A stretch of DNA of 64,000 bases from Nothopassalora personata (taxonomy: Eukaryota > Ascomycota > Dothideomycetes > Mycosphaerellales > Mycosphaerellaceae). The stretch's first letter is position 1, and each line of letters starts with the position of its first letter. The notes beneath the pieces were generated by a model. The model had not been told where the DNA came from. It was given only the letters and a program-made list of their open reading frames with translations, and did not search any database. The DNA lies in contig CM066290.1 of assembly GCA_033816765.1 (NCBI GenBank), positions 1,116,001 to 1,180,000 of the forward strand, written 5' to 3'. Both the position numbers and the translations under genes were made by a program. Positions 493-39,339 of this stretch are shown here, one piece after another.

Positions 493-510
493 GCGTGGCA
501 GACAGTGGTC
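468..510 (+). promoter_or_regulatory. Programmed -1 ribosomal frameshift site (heptamer plus hairpin)
   Basis: Bases 468–474 are GGGAAAT, and in the gag frame they split as G GGA AAT, the X XXY YYZ form required for a -1 slip. Five bases later, 480–487 pairs with 503–510 (8 bp with one G-U) around a 15-nt loop that contains the gag stop codon. Slippage moves the ribosome into the pol frame, which is open there. Heptamer, spacer length and stem all match known -1 sites; use in vivo is inferred. Confidence 0.8.
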
Positions 511-3500
511 AACCGAACAACCAAGGACAGAAAGAGCATGAGATTGAGAGACACAGAGTGCAAGAGCAAGACACGGATACAGACTATGGTGAGGAGCTGA
601 AGATATCGGCCTGCGCATTGGAGCCGCAGCAACCAGATGTACACCCTCACATAGTACTCCCAGTAATGATACAGCATGGGAAGGCACGAGGCCTTGTAGA
701 CTCTGCTTCCACCTCTCTCTTTCTCGACTGGAAGTTCACACGCAAACACAGAATACCCTTGATACCCCTTGTGCGCAACAAGAACCTGACCCTTGGGGAT
801 GGTAAGGCTGCTGCACGTCGCATCACGCACGTAGCCCTCGTCGATGTTGATATCGACGGTCATCACGAGCAAATGCTATGCTACATAACCGACCTCGAAT
901 ACGACATCGTCCTGGGCCTGCCGTGGCTGAGCACGCACAACCCAAACATCTTCTGGGAGACCGGTGAAGTGGCACTCAGATCAGACTACTGCTTTGGTCA
1001 CTGTCTTAAGAACAAGACATCGACAACAGTCCAGTCCCTGAACCATCGACACCGACAACGTAAGGAAGCAATGAAATATGGACCAGAGCCCTTCACCGAT
1101 GATCGCAGCTTCACGGCAGGAGGGGCAGAAGCAGAACTGAACCTATCCTCGATGGGCCTGTACGACGATGATGAGGAAGTCGAGTGTATAGGCGTCACGC
1201 AGCGCGCCTTCGAGATGTACGCGCACCGACCTGGCGCTGAATGTTTCTACATACTATCTACCGGCAAAGAGGACGAAGAAGGCGATGGTGAGATCAAGCT
1301 GAGCGCAATGGCAGCTGATGACTTGGATCAGTTCCTGAACAAGGAGTTCAACCATAACCCGAAGGAGAAGCTCCCACCAGAATACCATGATCTCGTAGAT
1401 GCATTCTCAGCGAAAGACCATGAAGGACTTCCTCCTCACAGACCTGGAATCGACCACGAAATTCACATCAAGCCTGATGGGCCCCAAGAACCGCCATACC
1501 GTAAGCCCTACGGACTGGCGCCTCAGGAGAATGAAGCAGTCAAGAAGTGGGTCACCGAACAGGAGCAACAAGGCAAAGTCCGGCCAGCAGGACAGAAGAC
1601 GAGCCAATCGCCGGCACCAGTACTGGTAGTCAGAAAGCCAGGCGGTGGACTGCGCGTGTGCATCGACTACCGAGGACTCAATGCGATCACTATCAAGAAC
1701 AGGTACCCTATACCGCTAATCCAAGAGACACTGAACCGCATGCACGGCAAGAGGTACTTCACGAAGCTGGACATCGTCGCAGCCTTCAACAAGCTTCGCA
1801 TTGCAGAAGGGCACGAATGGCTTACAGCATTCGCTACACGATATGGGGTGTACGAATGTCTTGTGTTACCATTCGGCCTATGCAATGGCCCTGCGTCGTT
1901 TCAGTCATACATTAACAGCGTGTTACAAGAACACCTGGATGACTTCGTCTCCGCGTACCTGGACGACGTTTTAATTTTTAGCGACACACTGGAGGAGCAC
2001 ATCGAACATGTGCGCAAGGTACTAGCAAAATTGAGGGATGCCGGACTGACGGTCGACATCGACAAGTGCGAGTTCCACCAGCAGCGAGTTAAGTACCTGG
2101 GACTTATTATCACCCCAGATGGCATCGAAATGGACCCAGAGAAGCTTGAATGTATCCAGTCATGGGAAGCACCTTCCAACCTCAAGGATGTGCAGGCGTT
2201 CCTCGGATTCGCCAACTTTTACAGACGGTTCATCGAGGCCTTCTCACGCCTCGCAGCGCCGCTGACCGAATTGACCAAGTCAAATGGACCTAGTAATCAC
2301 AAGAATCGCAGGGTTGACTGGACACCAGCATGCCAAGCAGCATTTGACGCTCTGAAGGCAGCATTCAGCAAAGCCGGTATGCTCGCACACTATGTGCCCG
2401 GTAGGCAAACAGTAGTCGAAACGGACTCATCAGATTTCGTGAACGCCGGAGTGCTTTCTCAGTACGACGAGGAAGGCGTGCTTCACCCTGTAGCATTCTA
2501 TTCAAAGAAGCTGAGCCCGCAGGAATGCAACTATGAGATTTATGACAAGGAGCTTCTAGCGATTATTAAGGCCTTCGAGGAATGGCGCCCGGAGTTGGCC
2601 TGCGAGGCGGATGATGACACCATCGAACCCGTGAAGGTGTTCACGGATCACAAGAACTTGGAGTACTTTATGACCACTAAGCAGCTGAATCGGCGCCAGG
2701 CACGTTGGGCCGAATTCCTGTCCCAGTTCAACTTCCGTATTGTCTATCGACCAGGTGTCCAAGGCACAAAGCCTGACAGCCTCACGAGACGCAGCCAGGA
2801 CCTTCCGCAGGGGGTGGACGATCCGCGAAATCAGCATCAGCATCAGACGTTGCTGCCGCCTGAGCGATTTCTTAAGATCGACTCGATGCGCGCAACTGTC
2901 GAAGATGCGGCTGAGGATGTTGCACCTGTTGAGAACACACCTACCGCACCAATTGAGGAAGCCCTGAACCCGGAGGCCACCGAATTCATACCGTCCACGC
3001 AGACGCAGACAGCATCCGAGACGGAACAGGAAGCCGAACTCGAGTACAGAATGACAATGGCTTATGCCGCGGATGCAGACCTGAAGTCAGCTATCAGAGC
3101 CCTGCAGAAGGGCGAGACCCCAGCACTCCTTCAGAAAGCGAAGGTGCATCCAGTACACTGCAAGGTCGAAGGGGACCTGCTGTACGTCCGTAACCAGTAT
3201 AATGACTGGAGTCTATGGGTGCCAGAGGACCAGAAGCTCCGCACTCGGATAGTCAAGATGAACCATGACACCCCAGCGGCCGGTCACCCAGGCAGAGCCC
3301 GCACCTACGAGCTCGTTGCACGTGAATTCTACTGGCCTGGTTTGGCTAGATCTGTGCGCAGATACAACGCGAATTGCCGCAGGTGCCGCACGACGAAATC
3401 TGTGCATACCCAGCCACCTGGATTACTGCACCCACTTTCGGTGCCAGAACGACCTTGGCAACACATCGCAGTTGACTTTGTGGTTGACCTGCCACCAAGC

Positions 3501-4613
3501 GAACTCGACGGCATGACTTACACCAATGTTATGACAGTCACCGACAGACTCACTAAGGAAGTGGAACTGATACCCATCGGCGCGATGACAGCGCAGAACG
3601 CGGCGCGACTTTTCTTAAAGCACGTGTTCACCCGGCATGGCCTCCCAGAAACCATCACGTCTGATCGCGGAAAGCAGTTCATCGCCACTTTCTGGAAGCG
3701 CCTATGCAAGATGCTGCGCATCAGCAGGAAGCTGAGTTCCTCCTACCACCCTGAAACGGATGGGCAATCAGAACGCACTAACCAAGAGATGGAACAGTAC
3801 TTACGCACCTTCACGAATGAGGCACAGAGCGACTGGGCCGACTGGCTGTGCTTAGCGCAGTTCGCTATTAACAACCGAGTGTCGGAGACCACTGGAGTGT
3901 CACCGTTCTACGCCAATGTTGGATATAACCCAGAGTTCACCGAGCGTATCGATTTGCAAGCAGGCAAGGACCGACACATGACAACCCTTCAGCGACTCGA
4001 CAGCAAGTCAGCCGAAGCCTTCGCCAAACGCATCTGTGAGCTACATCGCAATCTTCAAGAGAACATGAGGATGTCACAGGCGCTGCAAGCCGAAGCAGCA
4101 AACAGGCACCGAAGCATCCCACCAGACTACAAGGTTGGCGACTGGGTGTATCTAAGCACGAAGAACATTCGCACCACTCGACCATCCAAGAAGCTGGACC
4201 GCAGATATGCAGGACCGTACCAGATCACGGAGGTGATGCCCGCTAGGCTGTCATACAAGCTGAACCTGTCGGATGCATTGAGCGGACTCGATAATTGCTT
4301 CCACACCTCCCTGTTACAGCGAGCCGACAACCCCGATCTCCCACCGCTCGAGGGACAGCACCTGGCACCGCCGCCGCCAGTGGCCATCGAACCCGACACA
4401 ACTGCAGCTGACGCAGTCGCCGATGTCACAGTCACAGCCCCGGCACCAGAATATGAGGTGGACAAGATCTTGGACATGTACACGCGGAAGCGCGCAGGCA
4501 AAGTGAAGAAGGGAAAGAAGCGCAAGGTGGACACTTGGTACAAGGTGCGATGGACTGGCTATCAGGATATGGAGGCCGGAGAGACTTGGCAACCTGCAGA
4601 GGACCTGTTGTGA
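474..4613 (+). CDS. Pol polyprotein (protease, RT, RNase H, integrase, chromodomain)
   Basis: One open frame; residue numbers below count from the GTG codon at 495, which is not a likely true start because Pol is probably entered by frameshift. Aspartic protease lies near residues 52–145 with D-S-A-S in place of D-S/T-G-A. RT is at about 300–560 with YLDD at 488–491. RNase H is at about 630–760. Integrase has an HHCC zinc site (H924, H931, C961, C964) and the D994, D1057, E1093 triad in D-x35-E spacing. A chromodomain begins near 1319. TGA at 4611–4613 cuts the chromodomain before its last helix, and that helix is readable in another frame just downstream. All catalytic residues except the protease Gly are present. 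Chromodomain integrases are known to favour methylated-histone chromatin. Confidence 0.92.
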   Translation, partial: WRGHCLSVADSGQPNNQGQKEHEIERHRVQEQDTDTDYGEELKISACALEPQQPDVHPHIVLPVMIQHGKARGLVDSASTSLFLDWKFTRKHRIPLIPLVRNKNLTLGDGKAAARRITHVALVDVDIDGHHEQMLCYITDLEYDIVLGLPWLSTHNPNIFWETGEVALRSDYCFGHCLKNKTSTTVQSLNHRHRQRKEAMKYGPEPFTDDRSFTAGGAEAELNLSSMGLYDDDEEVECIGVTQRAFEMYAHRPGAECFYILSTGKEDEEGDGEIKLSAMAADDLDQFLNKEFNHNPKEKLPPEYHDLVDAFSAKDHEGLPPHRPGIDHEIHIKPDGPQEPPYRKPYGLAPQENEAVKKWVTEQEQQGKVRPAGQKTSQSPAPVLVVRKPGGGLRVCIDYRGLNAITIKNRYPIPLIQETLNRMHGKRYFTKLDIVAAFNKLRIAEGHEWLTAFATRYGVYECLVLPFGLCNGPASFQSYINSVLQEHLDDFVSAYLDDVLIFSDTLEEHIEHVRKVLAKLRDAGLTVDIDKCEFHQQRVKYLGLIITPDGIEMDPEKLECIQSWEAPSNLKDVQAFLGFANFYRRFIEAFSRLAAPLTELTKSNGPSNHKNRRVDWTPACQAAFDALKAAFSKAGMLAHYVPGRQTVVETDSSDFVNAGVLSQYDEEGVLHPVAFYSKKLSPQECNYEIYDKELLAIIKAFEEWRPELACEADDDTIEPVKVFTDHKNLEYFMTTKQLNRRQARWAEFLSQFNFRIVYRPGVQGTKPDSLTRRSQDLPQGVDDPRNQHQHQTLLPPERFLKIDSMRATVEDAAEDVAPVENTPTAPIEEALNPEATEFIPSTQTQTASETEQEAELEYRMTMAYAADADLKSAIRALQKGETPALLQKAKVHPVHCKVEGDLLYVRNQYNDWSLWVPEDQKLRTRIVKMNHDTPAAGHPGRARTYELVAREFYWPGLARSVRRYNANCRRCRTTKSVHTQPPGLLHPLSVPERPWQHIAVDFVVDLPPSELDGMTYTNVMTVTDRLTKEVELIPIGAMTAQNAARLFLKHVFTRHGLPETITSDRGKQFIATFWKRLCKMLRISRKLSSSYHPETDGQSERTNQEMEQYLRTFTNEAQSDWADWLCLAQFAINNRVSETTGVSPFYANVGYNPEFTERIDLQAGKDRHMTTLQRLDSKSAEAFAKRICELHRNLQENMRMSQALQAEAANRHRSIPPDYKVGDWVYLSTKNIRTTRPSKKLDRRYAGPYQITEVMPARLSYKLNLSDALSGLDNCFHTSLLQRADNPDLPPLEGQHLAPPPPVAIEPDTTAADAVADVTVTAPAPEYEVDKILDMYTRKRAGKVKKGKKRKVDTWYKVRWTGYQDMEAGETWQPAEDLL

Positions 4614-12975: not shown

Positions 12976-13048
12976 AGTTATGTAGCTTAGTAGTAGAGCG
13001 TAAGCTGTCTATACTCTTAAGGTCGTAGGTTCGATTCCTATCTAGCTA
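12976..13048 (+). other. tRNA-like sequence (RIPed), antisense in nested element
   Basis: Carries an A-box-like TAGCTTAGTAG and a B box GGTTCGATTCC, with recognisable D and T arms. The acceptor stem is partly decayed. Two other copies of the same sequence are at 21287–21360 and 32159–32232, always antisense to gag-pol and between pol and the antisense ORF. Confidence 0.6.
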
Positions 13049-21286: not shown

Positions 21287-21360
21287 CGACTAGGGTAGAA
21301 ATCGAACCTACGACCTTAAGAGTATAGATAGCTTACGCTCTACTACTAAGCTACCTAGCC
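21287..21360 (-). other. tRNA-like sequence, antisense in family B element
   Basis: 74 nt on the minus strand. It has a 7-bp acceptor stem (GGCTAGG with CTAGTC-type partner), a D arm, a T arm with TTCGATT loop and a G discriminator. The segment between D and T arms does not form a normal 5-bp/7-nt anticodon arm. Same length as the copy at 32159–32232. Confidence 0.6.
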
Positions 21361-32158: not shown

Positions 32159-32232
32159 CGACTAGAGTAGGAATCGAACCTACGACCTTAAGAGTGTAGA
32201 CAGCTTACGCTCTACTACTAAGCTACCTAGCC
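32159..32232 (-). other. tRNA-like sequence, antisense in element C (best preserved)
   Basis: 74 nt on the minus strand. It has a perfect 7-bp acceptor stem with two G-U pairs, D arm GCTT/GAGC, T arm GTAGG/CCTAC with TTCGATT loop, discriminator G, A box TAGCTTAGTAG and B box GGTTCGATTCC. The 25 nt between D and T arms pair only as TAAG/CTTA around 11 nt, so there is no normal anticodon. It could be a Pol III promoter or a tRNA-derived structure rather than a decoding tRNA. Confidence 0.65.
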
Positions 32233-32276
32233 GATTAATAAGAACAGGGACATAACTTATAAATAAATACCCTTAC

Positions 32277-32434
32277 TGTCACGGGTGAACGACGTGTACA
32301 CTGAGGTTCTGTGTGGTATGCAATAAGTTCGATACAGAAGAAGGAGAAAACCGAGCGAAGCCCGGAACAAAGAAAATGGAGTCAGGTCCGCACGGGCTCA
32401 GCCCGTGCCAAGATGCAAGGGCTCGCCCCTTACA
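32277..32434 (-). repeat. 3' LTR of intact element (158 bp)
   Basis: On the plus strand it runs TGTCACGGG...CCCTTACA and matches 38831–38988. It contains a GC-rich inverted repeat (CACGGGCT/AGCCCGTG) at about 32391–32407. Confidence 0.95.
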
Positions 32435-32456
32435 TTACCCCCCCTCTCCCCTCCGC
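32435..32456 (-). other. Polypurine tract of intact element
   Basis: The plus strand is a C/T run directly inside the 3' LTR; on the element strand it is a G/A run ending beside the LTR start. Confidence 0.8.
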
Positions 32457-32689
32457 CGCCTGCAGCGTCTCCTCCGCCTGCTTGTTGTCGCCGTCGAAGG
32501 CCGTGCCTTCATTGTCGGGTCCCGCCGTCGCTGTGTTGTGGTATTGTTGCCTAGGTGAGTGTGAGGTTTCGTGTTGTTACCCATGTGACAATGGCTATTG
32601 TCACATGTGAACAATAGGACTCCAGAATATATCTACCGGATAGCTTCCTCTTTTTTTTCTTTTTTTTTTTGCTCGGCAACCATTAAGCG

Positions 32690-32884
32690 AATGTATGTGA
32701 ACACACCCCTTGACAGCACCCTCCCTCCTCTTCCTCCACTAGCCCTATCACCTCCGCCCCTCTCTACGATCCCCTTCGCCCTCGATCCGATTCCTTCTCG
32801 CCGCGCTCCGACAGAAACTAACCGGATTCCAGCACCACCAACACAACAGCCTCCAAACACCACATCTTCAATCAATACCATCAA
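32690..32884 (+). promoter_or_regulatory. Probable promoter/5' UTR of the antisense gene
   Basis: A pyrimidine-rich tract on the plus strand (about 32713–32800), of the kind common before fungal start sites, is followed by a C/A-rich leader and a GTAAGT donor at 32885. One plus frame is open through 32598–32888, but it does not join in phase with the downstream exons. I take this as untranslated leader. Confidence 0.4.
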
Positions 32885-32944
32885 GTAAGTCCGATTCTTT
32901 TGAGCCGGCCTCCGATGCTTTTTAACTGGTTTCCAGCAGAAAAC

Positions 32945-33444
32945 ATGCTCTACCACTGCCTGGAGTGCGCCAACTCTGGCCGCGATTGCGTGGGCCCTGC
33001 CGTAAGACGCCTGAGTCCGACGTTTTCCAGCCGGACTCCGCTCACAAACATCCGCAGGCCGCCACTCAAGTCCGCAGCTGCGACGAGTGCCTCCGCCTTC
33101 AGAAGCGCTGCCGCCCGCTGTGAGTCGCTCTCCGACCCCTTTCGACCGGACTCCGCTAACCCCCCACAGCCCAGCACTCTGCCACAAGGCGTACGCGGCC
33201 TGGACCCGTGCCGGCAACGCTTCCAAGGCGTAAGTCTCCGGCCTGCGATCGTTTTCCGTCGGCTAACGCCTGAAAAGCACCAAACTCGACAATCTCAAGA
33301 AGGTCATCAAGGCTTGGCGCCCGCTCTCCAAGCTCGAGTCCGATGGTCTGCTGTCCGGGTAATTTCCACCGGTCTCCGATTGAAAACCATCGCTAACCGT
33401 CTCTCAGTCCTGTGGCTGCTGAGGTCACTGGCTCCATGGAGTGA
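32945..33444 (+). CDS. Antisense spliced gene: small Zn2Cys6-like protein carried by retrotransposon
   Basis: Predicted exons 32945–33001, 33058–33119, 33170–33229, 33278–33358 and 33408–33444, after a leader intron 32885–32936. Introns of 48–56 bp have GT donors (GTAAG/GTGAG/GTAAT), AG acceptors and CTAAC-type branch sites (33262 and 33392 regions). A sixth intron-like unit, 33468–33517, lies after the stop. Splicing gives an unbroken frame of about 98 residues. Its N-terminal half reads C-x2-C-x6-C-x11-C-x2-C-x6-C, the fungal Zn2Cys6 spacing, followed by a Lys/Leu/Trp-rich helical part. ATG 32945 has A at -3. The gene runs opposite to gag-pol, so element transcription would not remove these introns. 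Exon joins are predicted, not proven; a longer N-terminus is possible. Confidence 0.65.
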
Positions 33445-33792
33445 GCCATCAACGCGCAAGCTGGCTCGTAAGTGTTGCACTCCGATTGAAAGACGTCGCT
33501 GACCGATCATTTTCCAGCGGCCCCGTCCCTCCTGCCCTCCGCCTTGGCACCCGCCGCGACATGTCTTGAGTGGTCTCCGGTGGTTTTCGCGCGGGCCGCG
33601 GTCGGGCCATCACAATGCTTTTGCCATCCCCGTATGGGGTGGGCCGGCCTCCGCTTCTTTTTGGTCGGGCCCCGCTGCCTTTTGGCGGCATGAATGAATG
33701 AAATTCTTTAAAACTTTTTCCTTTTCTCACGTGCTCTCAATCTGACTCCTGCTCCCAAACGCCTGTGCTCATGTCAACTGACCCGCAATCCG

Positions 33793-36700
33793 TCACTTAC
33801 CTGTCGCCCTGCCCTTCTTCTTGACTTCCCATGCTTGCCTTGGTCCATCGTGCGTCATCGGGTTGCCGTGCTTTTTCTCAAAGTCGTCTGCTGCAGCTGT
33901 GTCCGCTAGATACTCCAATGGTTCCCACGTAGGCTTGTGGTATCCAGTCCATTTCACTAGGACTTCGCGTGCTTTGCCCCTCCCTTTCGCCTTGGTTCTG
34001 GCGCAGAGAATCTCCTCTACATGCCATTCCTCATGAGATTCAATGAGGATGGGGTCCGGCTGTTTGTCGTCGATCTCCTGTCCAGGCAACGGGTCTTGGC
34101 TTGCAGGTCGCAACAAGTCTGGGTGAAAGACCGGGTGGATTCCATCGGGGATCCCTGACAATCGGATGGACAGCGGTGAGATGACCTCCGCCACCGTGTA
34201 CTTTGCGTGCTTATGGTCGATACTCTTCTTCGGCCGGGTCGTAGTGTAGTTCCTTAGATCCAGCCACACCTTGTCACCGACCCGATAAATCGGCGCTGGC
34301 TTCCGATCTTTGTTGGCGCTCTCCTCTTGCTCCTGGGCGGAGTCCGCCATGCTCGCTTGGCACAGGTCCGTGATCTGCTGCATCCTTTCCACAAAGAGCG
34401 TTGCCCGTTTGGCGGCATCCAGCGACGAAGTCGTTGAGTCCGGCTGCAACTGGACGGGGAATGGCGCTTCGTAACCGTGGACGGCAAAGAAGGGGCTCAT
34501 GCCTAGGCCCGCTTGGTACCGTCCGTTCAGCGCCAGCTGAGCGGTGGAGAGCCACTTTTTCCAATCGGACTGCTCGTGGTTGACATAATTCCGAAGGTAC
34601 GCCTGCACTTCTTGGTTCAACCTCTCGGGCCCTCCGTCCGTTTGTGGGTGGTAGGCGGAGCTAAGTCTCTGCTTCACGCCGGTTAAACGACAGAATGTCT
34701 TCCAGAATGTGCTTGTCCAGTTCGTGCCTCTATCGCTCGTGATGGCCTTAGGAATCCCGTAGTATCTCACCCAGCAGTCCAGGAATCTCTCGGCGCAGTC
34801 CTCCGCTTTCATGGTGGACATCGCTTCCAAGACGACGGTCTTGCTCAGTCTGTCCTTGATTACCCACAAGCAAGTGTTTCCCTGCGACTCCGGCATGTCC
34901 GTCATGAAATCCATAGAGATCTCCTGGAAGAAACGATCGGGTACCGGTAAAGGCTGAAGGAGTCCATGCTTTTGCTCCCTCCATACCTTATTTCTCCCAC
35001 AGTGATCGCAGTTCCTCAAGAACTGTCTCACGTGCCTTGACTGTAGAGGCCAGTAAAAGTTACGTCTCAAGATAGACGCTGTGGAGTCCCTGCCTGGATG
35101 GCCGTAGACCGGTGAATCATGAACGGACTGGATGAGCTTCGTCCGCAGGACATCGTTCTGCAATATCTCCGCGCCCGCCTCTTTGTAGTCGGCTTCCGTC
35201 GTTGCTGGGGCTCCCGGCACCCAGATTCTTCCGCGGTGCCGCAGGTGTCCGTTGTCGTCGATGCTGCAGTCACCGGCTTGTACCTTGAGCTTCACTTCGC
35301 TCGGGAGTGAACGCGCCCCGGTTCTTACTGCGTGGAGTACTGCCTGAAACGTGCTGTCTTCATCGGCGGTCTTCCTCCAGATCTCGTTCAATTCTGGATC
35401 TGTGAAGGGGCCCGATGATGCGCCCGGTGAGTCCGACGTTTTCTCGGTGGAGTCGACTCCGAATTGGGTGGCCATAATCTGGACCGATGAAACCATCGTA
35501 GCGGATGAAGGTGCATCTGCTACCACCTCGCCTCCCCCCCCTGGAGCCGGCCAATTGCGTATGGCATCCGGCCGCAAAAACCTGCGAAAACGCGACAATT
35601 TGTCGTCCTGGCCGAGCGTATCCTGCTCCCTCCGTGACAATGCATCCGGCACAATTGCCTCGGCGCCCGGCCTGTATACCAGGGTAAACTGAAACAACGC
35701 GATGTGCTCCACCCACCTGATCTGCCTCTCAGACAACTGCCTCTTTGTCATAAAGTACTCAAGGTTCTTGTGGTCCGTCCAAATTGTAAAGGGACCACAC
35801 GTTTTCAGCTCGGGGGCCCACTCTTTGAGGCAGGAGACTACTGCGAGCATCTCTTTGTCATGGATGTCGTAGTTAATCTCAGCCTTATTCAGTTTCTTTG
35901 AGTAGAACCCTACCGGCTTCACTACCCCGTCCTTTTCTTGCAGGAGAGCGCCACCCAGGGCAAATCCACTGCAGTCCGTCTCCAAAAAGGTGGGAAGCTC
36001 CGGGTTCCAATGGGCCAGCACAGGAGCTTCACAGTACTTCTTCTTCAGGGCCTGAAAGGCGTCCTCCTGACGTTTCCCCAAGGAGAACGGCGTTTTCTTT
36101 CCCGTCAGCGACGTCAAGGGTTCGGCCAACTTCGAGTAGTTGGGGATGAACATCCTGTAGTAATTCGCGAACCCGAGGAAACGACGCACTTCTTTCTGAG
36201 TGACGGGCGTCTTCCAGTCCCGTACGGCATCCACCTTTTCCGGGTCTGGTCCCACCCCCTTTCCGTCGGCGTGGACGATGAACCCTAGGTACTTGATCTT
36301 CTTCTGTGCGAACTCGCATTTACCTGGATCTAAGAACAGGCCTCCGTCCCAAAGCTTATGGAGAACGATGCGAACCTTCTTGAAGTGGTCCTCCTTCGAC
36401 CCATCCGAGTAGATCACTACGTCATCAGCGTATGCAGAGGCGAAGTCGTCCAGGTGTTCCCGCAGCAAACTGTTAATATACCGTTGGAAAGTTGCCGGCG
36501 CCCCGGACAAACCAAACGGACACACCAACCACTCCCACAGGCCAAATCTCGTTCTAAACGCGGTCTTGTACTCCTCGCCTCTTGCCATCCGGAGATGGTG
36601 GAACGCGGCAACTACGTCCACCTTCGTCATCCATCTGGCTCCCGTTAGATTTCGGATGGTCTCCGGGATCAAAGGCAGCGGGTAGCGATCTTGCTTCGTA

Positions 36701-38772
36701 ATCGCGTTCAGCGCCCTATAATCGCAGCAAAAGCGTAGTCCTCCTCCGGGCTTCTTCACAAACAGGACGGGGGCCGCCGCTTCTGAGGTGGAGGGACGGA
36801 TGTATCCCTTGCGATGCAGCTCGGTTAGCGACTTGCGTAGCACCAGCAGCTCGTCTTTCGACATGCTATACAACGGTCCCCAGGGCAGTGGCTCCTGCGA
36901 TCCGTCTGGTTTCGTCCGGATCTCGATCCTGTGGTCAAGTTCCCCACGATGGGGCGCGAGCTTGTCGGCTTCCCGCGTGGAAAAGAGTGGGATCATGTCC
37001 CAAAGTTCCGGAGGCAGCTTCATTTTGAGCTCCTCCCTCGTGGGCGGTTCCTTCTTGCTCAGGGCTTTCTTGATGTCCTCCACGGTTGCCGCGGCGATCG
37101 TAGCAAAACGTTCGCCCGCCTCGCGTTCTTTATGGTTGCGTCCTTCGGGCACCCATTTCTTTGCCAAACCGTGGTAGTACCGGTGCTTTTCTGGCGCAGT
37201 TCGGATTTGATTGTGCGCTTTCCAAGGGTTCCCCAGAATCATCGGGAAGTCCAAGTCGGGCACGACGTATGCGTACACGACCTCGTGGATGCCGGCGATT
37301 TCCATGTGGAAAGCAACTACTCCTTCAATCGAGTTTCGCATCGCTTTGGTGAACCCTGTAGCCTTGCGGCTCTCGTTGCTGACATACGTGAGACCGAGTC
37401 CTTTCGCTAGGTCTCCGTTAATTACAGCATAACACATGCATCCTTCATCGATAAGGGCAAACGTGCCGTAACTTTCGTTCAGGAGTACGTCGGTATATAC
37501 AAGGTTCCCGTTCATAGAACTCTTGGCAGCGTTCCACCCCTTTACCAGTGCTTCTTTGTCTCCTGGTGCTGGCTTTCGCCCAGGAGCTAGTCTTTTCCCA
37601 AACCCGTCGTCTTCCAGGATCGGCGCAACTGAGGCTGCGTTGATCTTGGTGGGGTTGACTGCTGCGGCGTACGGACATTCCTTCACTCGATGCCCGCTCG
37701 CTCCGCAACGGAAACAGAGCTGTTCTTGGCGCCTTCGATCTCTCTCAGCGGTGTCGACCCATTTCGCTCTCTGCTTCCCCTTGTCCTCCTTCCGGTCTCC
37801 ACGACTTCTAGAGCGGCCTCCGTTCGTTCGGGTTGGTGCCATGATGGTGTCACCATCATGGTCCACCCGGGTAACGGTAGGTCCCGCAAAAGAACGAGTG
37901 GTAACCGTGGTGGTCGCACTGGAGTCCTTGTTGTTGTCCTTCCACTTCTTGTGGGCTATTCTAAACTGGTCTGTGTCCTCGAGGTTGGTCATGATCCGCT
38001 TAACCTCCTCTGCGAACTCGTAGTAATCCTCCTTTTTCGGCATGGCTGCCGTATACATTCTGGCGGGATTCGAGAAGGTGTTGCTGAGGTAGCCGATCTT
38101 CGCGTCATTGCTCCAGTCTTCTCCGCCGGCGGTCAACAGGAGTCCGTCGAATTTCATCTGGTGATCGTGCCACGGTTGTCCGTTCACGTGTCTAATCTTG
38201 GTGAGTTGTTCTAGAGCCTTGGCGCGTTCGTTGCTATCGCCAAAGACCTTTTCGAGTTGCGCAAAGAAAGCAACGGGGTCCTTCCCAAGTTCACCGTCTC
38301 CCTTGTCCCAGAAGTGCCGCATCCTCGTGCGCTCCCTCGCTAGCAACGTGTCGTTGATCGCGTCCCAGTAGAATTCATTGGAGAGCGTCGGTTTCAGTGC
38401 GGAACGCACCCTGAAGGAACTTTTCAACCTTAGGAAGTAGTCCCTGAATGTTTCGGCTTTGCCATCCCATGAGGGCGGGTTCCAGCCTCTGGGACCCGAC
38501 GGTTCTCCGCCGCTGCGCGGCGCGTTCGCGGCGGCATTCAGCGTCTGCAGCAACTGTCTCATTAGGTCACCAGTAGACGCGTCGTCCGGAACTGGTAGTG
38601 AGACTGCAGGGGTTGACTGACGTCGAGCGTCTTCCGACTCTTTCAAGGCGGCGCGCGTTGCAATCAGTTCGGCCTGCATCTCTTCCTGTCGCTGGTACAA
38701 TTGCTCGAGCATAAGCTGAAAATTTTCATTCGAGGCACCAACCCCGGGGTTCTCGCTACCCGACGACGCCAT
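33793..38772 (-). CDS. Single-frame Gag-Pol polyprotein (1659 aa) with chromodomain
   Basis: Start taken at ATG 38772, the first ATG in the frame. Gag about 1–400 with coiled coil near 20–50 and zinc knuckle C-x2-C-x4-H-x4-C near 354–367. Protease motif D-E-G-C at about 443, instead of D-S-G-A. RT about 600–860 with Y-A-D-D near 782–785. RNase H about 925–1045. Integrase HHCC zinc site around 1219–1259 and D1288, D1347, E1383 triad. Chromodomain about 1583–1635. No frameshift between gag and pol, as in Tf1/sushi-type elements. All main catalytic residues are present, so the protein may be active. The last codons contain a GGTAAGT donor-like sequence. Confidence 0.95.
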   Translation of the reverse strand: MASSGSENPGVGASNENFQLMLEQLYQRQEEMQAELIATRAALKESEDARRQSTPAVSLPVPDDASTGDLMRQLLQTLNAAANAPRSGGEPSGPRGWNPPSWDGKAETFRDYFLRLKSSFRVRSALKPTLSNEFYWDAINDTLLARERTRMRHFWDKGDGELGKDPVAFFAQLEKVFGDSNERAKALEQLTKIRHVNGQPWHDHQMKFDGLLLTAGGEDWSNDAKIGYLSNTFSNPARMYTAAMPKKEDYYEFAEEVKRIMTNLEDTDQFRIAHKKWKDNNKDSSATTTVTTRSFAGPTVTRVDHDGDTIMAPTRTNGGRSRSRGDRKEDKGKQRAKWVDTAERDRRRQEQLCFRCGASGHRVKECPYAAAVNPTKINAASVAPILEDDGFGKRLAPGRKPAPGDKEALVKGWNAAKSSMNGNLVYTDVLLNESYGTFALIDEGCMCYAVINGDLAKGLGLTYVSNESRKATGFTKAMRNSIEGVVAFHMEIAGIHEVVYAYVVPDLDFPMILGNPWKAHNQIRTAPEKHRYYHGLAKKWVPEGRNHKEREAGERFATIAAATVEDIKKALSKKEPPTREELKMKLPPELWDMIPLFSTREADKLAPHRGELDHRIEIRTKPDGSQEPLPWGPLYSMSKDELLVLRKSLTELHRKGYIRPSTSEAAAPVLFVKKPGGGLRFCCDYRALNAITKQDRYPLPLIPETIRNLTGARWMTKVDVVAAFHHLRMARGEEYKTAFRTRFGLWEWLVCPFGLSGAPATFQRYINSLLREHLDDFASAYADDVVIYSDGSKEDHFKKVRIVLHKLWDGGLFLDPGKCEFAQKKIKYLGFIVHADGKGVGPDPEKVDAVRDWKTPVTQKEVRRFLGFANYYRMFIPNYSKLAEPLTSLTGKKTPFSLGKRQEDAFQALKKKYCEAPVLAHWNPELPTFLETDCSGFALGGALLQEKDGVVKPVGFYSKKLNKAEINYDIHDKEMLAVVSCLKEWAPELKTCGPFTIWTDHKNLEYFMTKRQLSERQIRWVEHIALFQFTLVYRPGAEAIVPDALSRREQDTLGQDDKLSRFRRFLRPDAIRNWPAPGGGGEVVADAPSSATMVSSVQIMATQFGVDSTEKTSDSPGASSGPFTDPELNEIWRKTADEDSTFQAVLHAVRTGARSLPSEVKLKVQAGDCSIDDNGHLRHRGRIWVPGAPATTEADYKEAGAEILQNDVLRTKLIQSVHDSPVYGHPGRDSTASILRRNFYWPLQSRHVRQFLRNCDHCGRNKVWREQKHGLLQPLPVPDRFFQEISMDFMTDMPESQGNTCLWVIKDRLSKTVVLEAMSTMKAEDCAERFLDCWVRYYGIPKAITSDRGTNWTSTFWKTFCRLTGVKQRLSSAYHPQTDGGPERLNQEVQAYLRNYVNHEQSDWKKWLSTAQLALNGRYQAGLGMSPFFAVHGYEAPFPVQLQPDSTTSSLDAAKRATLFVERMQQITDLCQASMADSAQEQEESANKDRKPAPIYRVGDKVWLDLRNYTTTRPKKSIDHKHAKYTVAEVISPLSIRLSGIPDGIHPVFHPDLLRPASQDPLPGQEIDDKQPDPILIESHEEWHVEEILCARTKAKGRGKAREVLVKWTGYHKPTWEPLEYLADTAAADDFEKKHGNPMTHDGPRQAWEVKKKGRATGK

Positions 38773-38819
38773 CACGTATTCCGTCTCTTTAATGGCGGGT
38801 GCCTGGTTGATTCGAATGG

Positions 38820-38829
38820 ATCGAACTTA
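38820..38829 (-). other. Self-primer-type primer-binding site
   Basis: On the element strand the ten bases TAAGTTCGAT lie one base after the 5' LTR. They are the exact complement of ATCGAACTTA inside the same LTR (38887 down to 38878). No tRNA-type TGG start is present. In Tf1 the first 11 nt of the RNA pair with such a site; use here is inferred. Confidence 0.7.
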
Positions 38830-38830
38830 A

Positions 38831-38988
38831 TGTCACGGGTGAACGACGTGTACACTGAGGTTCTGTGTGGTATGCAATAAGTTCGATACAGAAGAAGGAG
38901 AAAACCGAGCGAAGCCCGGAACAAAGAAAATGGAGTCAGGTCCGCACGGGCTCAGCCCGTGCCAAGATGCAAGGGCTCGCCCCTTACA
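38831..38988 (-). repeat. 5' LTR of intact element (158 bp)
   Basis: Matches 32277–32434 over its whole length by eye. Bases 38878–38887 form the partner of the primer-binding site and would be near the RNA 5' end if self-priming holds. Confidence 0.95.
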
Positions 38989-39339
38989 CTTACGAAGGAG
39001 ACGGCTGTTACGGATCGATCCGGAGAAGCTCCAGCCAACCAATCGATGCCTACACACTAGTGGAAGGATCCGATATGCAGAGTGCTCTCTCCGATCTGCG
39101 TGCTCTGTAACAGAGCAGAGAGAGCAGGACAGATCAACTGATCCGACTGATCAGTCACGCCAAGACATGGCACTATATAGACGACGCTTCTTTACGAGTA
39201 TAGATAGGAGCCTCGTGCTCAACTCATTTTAAGTATACACTATATACTGTTTGGAACCACTACCTTCATAACTGATTGAGACATCCCTGCAAAGATCCAA
39301 GTCCGAGTTGTGATAACGTACAGCGGTTCCTAACAACGG

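What the first reader, a model, noticed from the sequence alone, without database searches (positions are those of the whole stretch)
32885..33517. Spliced antisense cargo gene inside an intact LTR retrotransposon
Between pol and the 3' LTR of the intact element, on the opposite strand, six consecutive 48–56-bp units have GT donors, AG acceptors and CTAAC-like branch sites. Removing those before the stop gives one open frame with C-x2-C-x6-C-x11-C-x2-C-x6-C, the spacing of fungal Zn2Cys6 clusters. Antisense orientation would protect the introns during retrotransposition. I know of no described fungal gypsy element with such a gene; whether it controls the element or the host is open.
Basis: partly seen in the sequence, partly recalled or inferred. 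Interest (0 to 1): 0.9.

Follow-up and report, generated by a model that had tools for sequence, protein, structure and literature searches.

The report
Retrotransposon carrying its own operator array
A jumping gene in a likely fungal genome carries, on its reverse strand, a gene with six predicted introns for a predicted small zinc-cluster-like protein, and along its own DNA a regularly spaced set of paired short motifs that this protein likely binds, which would let the element recognise and regulate its own copies.

Summary
The element is an intact Ty3/gypsy-type retrotransposon with identical 158-bp LTRs. Between pol and the 3' LTR, antisense, lie six GT..AG introns and C-x2-C-x6-C-x11-C-x2-C-x6-C. 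The gene is conserved: a second family in the same genome (pol 80% identical) keeps all six introns at the same positions and phases, exons differ by multiples of three, and the products are 39% identical. The window copy's frame stops earlier than its sisters'.

Spacing 21 stands out from all others, is not reached in dinucleotide shuffles of the gene region or synonymous-codon shuffles of gag-pol (0 of 1000 each), and half-sites are kept between families better than spacers. Exact double dyads occur at 161 genomic places versus 9 for a reversed control.

I infer an element-encoded zinc-cluster-like factor that binds an element-wide operator array. Splicing, binding and function are untested. 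Antisense genes in fungal gypsy elements are not new (Botrytis Boty brtn); I found no description of the array.

The parts
32277..32434 (-). 3' LTR of the element (158 bp, TG..CA), target duplication CTTAC at 32272-32276
   Evidence: identical to the other LTR, 158 of 158
38831..38988 (-). 5' LTR, target duplication CTTAC at 38989-38993
33793..38775 (-). gag-pol single frame: zinc knuckle, RT, RNase H, integrase, chromodomain
   Evidence: Pfam, (zf-CCHC just under its cut-off, 20.6 versus 20.8 bits; Chromo 25.3 versus 25.1)
32440..32884 (+). upstream region and 5' leader of the antisense gene; contains the inverted repeat TGTGACAATGGCTATTGTCACA and a CT-rich stretch; 32506-32670 is 74-78% identical to family B
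   Evidence: promoter role inferred
32945..33444 (+). antisense coding frame as it stands in the window copy (98 codons, introns 2-5 removed); in sister copies the frame continues past intron 6
32885..32936 (+). intron 1 (leader); dyads 32906 (exact) and 32927 (two mismatches)
   Evidence: intron conserved in family B
33002..33057 (+). intron 2; dyads 33011 and 33032, 21 bp apart
33120..33169 (+). intron 3; dyads 33126 and 33147, 21 bp apart; acceptor AG lost in 11 of 17 near-identical copies
33230..33277 (+). intron 4; dyads 33239 and 33260, 21 bp apart (one mismatch each)
33359..33407 (+). intron 5; dyads 33370 and 33391, 21 bp apart, the second overlapping the CTAAC branch-like site
33468..33517 (+). 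intron 6; weak pair 33476 (two mismatches) and 33497 (one mismatch); family B has a stronger pair here
33571..33674 (.). downstream dyad pairs 33571/33592 and 33645/33666 (the latter both exact)
32495..32831 (.). upstream dyad pairs 32495/32516 and 32802/32823
34317..38804 (.). dyad pairs in gag-pol (first coordinates 34317, 35169, 35541, 35640, 36636, 36747, 37688, 37793, 38043, 38628) and two reaching past its start (38754, 38775)

Best explanation
A Ty3/gypsy-type retrotransposon carries, antisense between pol and its 3' LTR, a gene with six predicted introns whose predicted small zinc-cluster-like product likely binds the paired CGG-N3-CCG dyads, 21 bp apart, that lie in that gene's introns and flanks and along gag-pol, and would thereby mark and regulate the element's own copies. 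Shown by sequence: the gene, its introns and their conservation in a second family; the dyad array, its 21-bp spacing (two helical turns, so both dyads would face the same side of the DNA), its conservation above the surrounding sequence, and its strong enrichment in this element lineage within the genome. Inferred: splicing and translation; zinc binding; that the product binds CGG half-sites, as known Zn2Cys6 proteins do (general knowledge); and the outcome. Because sites run through the body of the element, including coding sequence, and not only near an LTR, I think a chromatin-level effect (anti-silencing or activation) more likely than ordinary promoter repression. Antisense orientation would keep the introns from being spliced out of the genomic RNA, so the operators inside them would survive each round of reverse transcription.
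For: Gene: family B (77% nt, 80% aa in pol) has six introns with GT..AG at the same positions; exon lengths A/B 57/66, 62/59, 60/60, 81/84, 60/54 differ only by multiples of three; products 39% identical with five of six cysteines kept. The 16 other copies except the frameshifted L016 read CD[EK]CRR in the second motif; Zn_clus is the only Pfam family reported for the L010 product, far below cut-off. Array: exact CGG-N3-CCG six times in 816 nt versus 0.47 expected, 0 of 500 shuffles; pairs at 21 bp: 8 versus a mean of 0.36 at other spacings, no spacing in any of 1000 shuffles reaches 8; 21 is the top spacing in 11 of 11 family B loci, two of which are almost identical. In gag-pol 10 pairs versus 2.25 in synonymous-codon shuffles, 0 of 1000. 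A scan of 64 triplets, 13 gaps and spacings to 60 puts CGG-N3-CCG at 21 bp first in the A gene, A pol and B gene. Conservation A to B: in pol, CGG/CCG triplets of eight modules kept 18 of 20 versus 86 of 165 other CGG/CCG triplets, p 0.0013; in the gene region half-site bases 86 of 112 versus spacers 101 of 185, p 0.0001, transversions alone, which RIP does not make, 15 of 112 versus 51 of 185, p 0.004, and triplets kept 13 of 23 versus 8 of 36, p 0.012. Introns hold 11 dyads (up to one mismatch) in 305 nt, exons 3 in 374 nt, p 0.013. Specificity: 161 exact double dyads in 54.5 Mb versus 9 for the reversed control; unrelated Ty3 element of the window 0 pairs, 22 kb of flanking sequence 1. RNA folding of seven modules unremarkable, z -0.94 to 0.80, favouring a DNA-level role.
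Against: No transcript or protein evidence. Zn_clus 8.9 bits against a cut-off of 21; the window product matched only PSI_integrin at E 0.59, the B product TPR_16 at 0.049; each motif alone matches nothing; PDB sequence search gave one irrelevant hit at E 2. No homologous protein at E 0.01 or 1 in about 5.8 billion sequences. The product evolves faster than pol (39% versus 80%), and exons 1-5 are no better conserved than introns 1-5; dN 0.62, dS 1.04, affected by RIP. Among near-identical copies most coding differences change amino acids (counted by hand). In B (L024, the gene translated) the fifth cysteine of the series is a Tyr codon and the frame has stops. Eleven of 17 copies, with six distinct left flanks, have lost intron 3's acceptor AG yet spread, so the full product is not needed in cis. 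RIP spares CGG/CCG: the decayed copy L018 still has 10 pairs against 9-13 in the others, so part of the gene-region conservation in B could be RIP bias; the pol triplet and transversion tests were made to avoid this. Only the spacing of cysteines and the CGG half-sites tie the protein to the sites.
Confidence: 0.5

Rival explanations
1. The dyad pairs are binding sites for a host zinc-cluster or chromatin factor that the element exploits, and the antisense protein does something else (for example a nucleic-acid chaperone or packaging factor).
For: Sites also lie in pol, far from the antisense gene; the Zn_clus score of the product is below cut-off; elements with an altered antisense gene kept spreading.
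Against: Exact double dyads are strongly enriched in this element lineage (161 versus 9 for the control; the rows printed, about 100 of 161, judged by eye, all have spacers like the A or B elements), so a host regulator using such sites would have few other targets. The element itself encodes a C-x2-C-x6-C protein.
Confidence: 0.22
2. The introns are copies of one ancestral intron or tandem repeat, and the dyads are relics of that shared origin without function.
For: Introns are alike in length and the modules share T-rich 12-bp centres; modules recur every 74-131 bp in the gene region (from the positions).
Against: Half-sites are better conserved between families than the spacers; pairs occur in pol coding sequence above synonymous-codon expectation, with none of the 20 triplets examined in codon frame.
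Confidence: 0.1
3. The antisense locus acts as RNA: an antisense transcript pairs with gag-pol RNA and feeds silencing or limits copy number; coding capacity is secondary.
For: Antisense transcripts of LTR elements have been proposed to act this way (passages of PMC7264820).
Against: The gene lies downstream of pol and not across it; frame, phases and cysteines are conserved between families, which an RNA role does not need; RNA structure of the modules is unremarkable.
Confidence: 0.1
4. The 21-bp alternation of GC-rich dyads and a T-rich centre positions nucleosomes on the element rather than binding a sequence-specific factor.
For: The period equals two helical turns and the 12-bp centre is T/A-rich.
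Against: Exact CGG and CCG triplets are kept, which rotational positioning does not require; the top motifs of the scan are this dyad or mostly overlapping readings of the same module.
Confidence: 0.06

Closest known systems
Boty / brtn of Botrytis cinerea (Ty3/gypsy with chromodomain and an antisense gene between pol and 3' LTR)
   Same: Antisense additional gene, same place, in a fungal gypsy element with gag, zinc finger, RT, IN and CHROMO domains (passages of PMC4227169, PMC8365987, PMC7264820).
   Different: Zhao et al. 2011 is not held, so homology, introns and cysteines of brtn are untested; no operator array is mentioned in the passages I saw.
VANC anti-silencing proteins and motif arrays of Arabidopsis VANDAL transposons
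   Same: Element-encoded, evolving protein with short motifs clustered in the element's non-coding parts, including introns of its own gene; motifs let it find its own family (passages of PMC5735166).
   Different: VANDALs are plant Mutator-like DNA transposons (recalled); their binding was demonstrated; motifs there are 9-mers often in tandem repeats, absent from the two coding probes tested. Here sites are 21-bp-paired dyads that also lie in pol, and binding is inferred.
HBZ of HTLV-1
   Same: Spliced antisense gene at the 3' end of an LTR element encoding a regulator of that element's transcription (abstract and passages of PMC3185765).
   Different: bZIP-type, acts by contacts with CREB and p300/CBP; transcript starts in the 3' LTR; no operator array recalled.
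Antisense aORFs of plant LTR elements (Grande gene23, RIRE2, Retand)
   Different: No introns or site arrays mentioned in the passages seen; host kingdom differs.
Drosophila gypsy Su(Hw) insulator (recalled, no call)
   Same: Retrotransposon with a cluster of zinc-finger binding sites.
   Different: Factor is host-encoded and the sites lie in the 5' leader.

Membership tests
Ty3/gypsy LTR retrotransposon (chromovirus type) | LTRs with target duplication, RT-RNaseH-integrase order, chromodomain | tested here: met
   chromo match marginal, 25.3 bits versus cut-off 25.1
Antisense additional ORF between pol and 3' LTR (aORF-3R, as in Boty brtn) | Antisense coding frame at that place, present in most copies | tested here: met
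   gene present in all 17 near-identical copies (one frameshifted, 11 with intron 3's acceptor lost) and, with stops, in the family B copy translated
Boty brtn | Sequence homology to BRTN | not testable with these tools
   paper not held; protein searches gave no hit at all
Fungal Zn2Cys6 binuclear cluster (PF00172) | C-x2-C-x6-C-x(5-12)-C-x2-C-x(6-8)-C spacing (recalled) | tested here: met
   spacing x2, x6, x11, x2, x6
Fungal Zn2Cys6 binuclear cluster (PF00172) | Profile score above Pfam's cut-off | tested here: not met
   8.9 bits versus 21 for the L010 product; window product no Zn_clus match. The second cysteine motif matches profile positions 1-14, as if the halves were in reverse order
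Fungal Zn2Cys6 binuclear cluster (PF00172) | Two zinc ions bound, CGG recognition | not testable with these tools
   needs protein; CGG/CCG arrays found in the element
VANC-like anti-silencing system (works like, not member of) | Element-specific motif arrays | tested here: met
VANC-like anti-silencing system (works like, not member of) | Protein binds the motif and relieves silencing | not testable with these tools
   no experiment available

The most novel reading that the evidence does not exclude
A retrotransposon that carries a self-addressing system: a reverse-strand zinc-cluster protein, possibly with its two half-clusters in swapped order, that coats the whole element through 21-bp-paired CGG-N3-CCG operators, hidden in its own introns and in synonymous positions of gag-pol, to counter silencing of its copies; a VANC-like anti-silencing system that arose independently in an LTR element outside plants.
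Probability: 0.35. Interest if true: 0.9.

Novelty: new variant of a known kind. Interest (0 to 1): 0.74.

Why it matters
Why LTR elements keep antisense genes is an open question; the review seen here (passages of PMC7264820) gives their function as unknown. An array of conserved sites in the same element turns this into a direct test: does the small protein bind them, and what happens to the element when it does? It would also explain why the gene keeps six introns: antisense introns, safe from splicing of the genomic RNA, give room for operators inside a gene. And it shows what look like operators written into the pol reading frame, above coding expectation, a layer that ordinary annotation would miss.

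Tried and rejected
Related loci elsewhere: viral contigs with the pol protein gave nothing and with a 28-member pol alignment 73 stretches, none confirmed; genome contigs gave 7 distant elements at 33-44% identity, with one 21-bp pair in L062, none in the other six, and 21 not the top spacing in any. Pol relatives of 79-85% identity exist in metagenome protein sets (120 of 4430 listed) but their DNA could not be read here. Protein searches with the two-family alignment (363 candidates) and the unspliced 226-residue frame (582 candidates) gave no hit. tRNA-linked insertion: not supported, a tRNA call lies in 1 of 18 loci; only the flank on the 3' LTR side, about 1.3 kb, was covered, since the other end of each locus lies inside the element. 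RNA hairpin role: seven modules fold no better than shuffles. Selection among near-identical copies is uninformative. My first comparison did not turn the copies to one strand; it was discarded and redone. The motif scan also gives a small p-value for another motif in an unrelated element (6.8e-7), so single p-values there are not proof; in A pol the top motif (1.6e-5) is hardly ahead of an overlapping one. The weight lies in the same motif and spacing ranking first in three regions. Structure prediction was not tried, because a spliced product is not read letter for letter from the DNA as that tool requires. Literature searches; searches returned no paper.

Full report
What is there. The window holds an intact LTR retrotransposon at 32277-38988 on the minus strand: LTRs of 158 bp identical to each other, target duplication CTTAC, a polypurine run next to the 3' LTR, and one gag-pol frame 33793-38775 with RT, RNase H, integrase and a marginal chromodomain match. 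Pol relatives at about 60% come from Berkeleyomyces, Colletotrichum and other ascomycetes and RIP-type decay is obvious in the neighbouring AT-rich block (TA/AT 1.9), so a filamentous ascomycete is likely (inferred).

The antisense gene. Six GT..AG introns of 48-56 nt lie at the stated coordinates. The genome search found 17 near-identical copies (six of them in one array on contig C1) and one RIP-decayed copy of 87% (94 C>T and 74 G>A of 241 substitutions); such counts are lower bounds. Under the fixed intron model the window copy gives 98 codons, 14 copies 123, one 120 and one a frameshifted 124. Six of the 17 keep AG at all six acceptors; 11 have lost the AG of intron 3. If the next AG is used (predicted), the product would be 89 residues and still have both cysteine motifs (translated for L002 and L012). 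These 11 copies have six distinct left flanks, so elements with the altered gene went on transposing, alone or helped in trans.

Conservation. Searching the genome with the gene region gave 53 matches, among them the 18 copies above and 22 short matches of 74-78%. I read 11 loci of these and one longer stretch; the 11 are 90% or more identical to each other where they align and form a second family, B. A search with B's product gave 347 matches, partly listed, and every row I saw lists in-frame stops, some from reading through introns. B's pol is about 80% identical in protein. In L024, the B copy that I translated, all six introns have GT..AG at the same positions and phases, and exon lengths differ only by multiples of three. 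The products align at 39% identity with five of six cysteines kept; the remaining one is a Tyr codon in B, explicable by a RIP-type change but not shown. Codon-position differences are 50, 52, 64 over 115 codons, dN 0.62 and dS 1.04: weak evidence of constraint, partly masked by RIP. Introns 1-5 are at least as conserved as exons 1-5 (53-80% versus 51-62%). That odd result led to the next one.

The array. The introns carry pairs of CGG-N3-CCG whose starts are 21 bp apart, as do the gene's flanks. In A, five of six introns have a pair with at most two mismatches in the twelve fixed bases; intron 6 has three. In B's L061, introns 2 to 6 have such a pair; the one in intron 1 has three mismatches (read from the sequence). 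Exact single dyads: six in 816 nt against 0.47 in shuffles. Pairs at 21 bp: eight, against a mean of 0.36 at other spacings, and no spacing in any of 1000 shuffles reaches eight; all 11 B loci (L023 and L024 almost identical) have 21 as their top spacing with 4-10 pairs. Introns hold 11 dyads with up to one mismatch in 305 nt, coding exons three in 374 nt, none of them exact (p 0.013). Over the whole element 24 overlapping pairs with at most two mismatches are found, half of them in gag-pol or at its start; the other Ty3 element of the window has none, the 26.7-kb AT-rich block one and 22 kb of flanking sequence one. Shuffling synonymous codons of gag-pol gives 2.25 pairs on average against ten observed, 0 of 1000; with at most one mismatch per pair the excess is weaker, two observed, reached in 44 of 1000.

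The array is constrained. In the 4.2 kb of pol that aligns between A and B, CGG/CCG triplets inside eight modules are kept 18 of 20 times against 86 of 165 for other CGG/CCG triplets (p 0.0013); none of the 20 lies in codon frame, so this is not conservation of Arg or Pro codons. In the gene region half-site bases are identical at 86 of 112 positions, spacers at 101 of 185 and other bases at 305 of 588. RIP could favour half-sites there, since the decayed copy L018 still has 10 pairs. Two controls against that: transversions, which RIP does not make, hit half-sites 15 of 112 times and spacers 51 of 185 (p 0.004), and CGG/CCG triplets are kept 13 of 23 times in modules and 8 of 36 elsewhere (p 0.012). 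A scan of all 64 triplets, 13 gaps and spacings to 60 ranks CGG-N3-CCG at 21 bp first in the A gene, in A pol and in the B gene, and not in 5 kb of flanking sequence or the unrelated element. Exact double dyads occur at 161 places in the genome against nine for the reversed pattern. About 100 of the 161 were printed; judged by eye, all of these have spacers like the A or B elements.

Mechanism. Zinc-cluster proteins bind CGG triplets, often as dimers on inverted CGG/CCG pairs (general knowledge). An element with a zinc-cluster-like gene and an array of conserved inverted CGG pairs, two helical turns apart, most simply encodes the factor and its sites together. The sites run through the body of the element, so I favour a chromatin-level effect such as anti-silencing over simple promoter control. 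RNA-level roles of the motif are not supported by folding. Shown: gene structure, its conservation, the array, its constraint and enrichment. Inferred: splicing, translation, zinc, binding, direction of the effect.

The cysteine motifs. The first (CLECANSGRDC) looks to me like the second half of a canonical cluster and the second (CDECRRLQKRC in most copies) like the first half (recalled pattern). Pfam agrees weakly: residues 25-38 match positions 1-14 of Zn_clus, 8.9 bits, far below the cut-off of 21, and neither motif alone gives a match. A permuted cluster is possible, not shown.

Known or new. Antisense genes between pol and the 3' LTR are known in plants and in Botrytis Boty (brtn), so the kind is known (passages; the Boty paper itself was not held). 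Closest in logic are the VANC proteins of VANDAL transposons, whose motifs cluster in introns of their own gene among other places (passages), and HBZ for a spliced antisense regulator. I found no description of a retrotransposon with an antisense zinc-cluster gene and an operator array (searches of an open-licence library only).

Noticed in passing
G000 contig C1, 5.714-5.776 Mb: Six copies of the element, three on one strand then three on the other, spaced about 10.775 kb within each set, with the same left flank: a segmental amplification or large inverted array (or an assembly artefact).
   Followed up: no
window 21287-21360 and 32159-32232 (also 12976-13048): tRNA-like genes inside AT-rich repeats about 10.87 kb apart; ARAGORN calls one a CTA-anticodon tRNA about 44 bp from the LTR. 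Of 18 element loci only this one has a tRNA call, one flank tested.
   Followed up: partly
window 495-4613: A second, different Ty3/gypsy element with RT, RNase H, integrase and chromodomain on the plus strand; it has no 21-bp dyad pairs, but its own top periodic motif is CTG-N6-CAG at 15 bp.
   Followed up: partly
window 5300-32000: AT-rich block with strong RIP indices (TA/AT 1.9), whereas the window's element shows none (0.66) although 17 highly similar copies exist.
   Followed up: no
window 32574-32614: Near-perfect inverted repeat TGTGACAATGGCTATTGTCACA upstream of the antisense gene, in a stretch well conserved with family B; could be part of its promoter.
   Followed up: no
window 38781-38830, minus strand: The bases after the 5' LTR do not look like a usual tRNA 3'-end primer site (recalled); they contain TTCGATCC, a T-arm-like string.
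   Followed up: no
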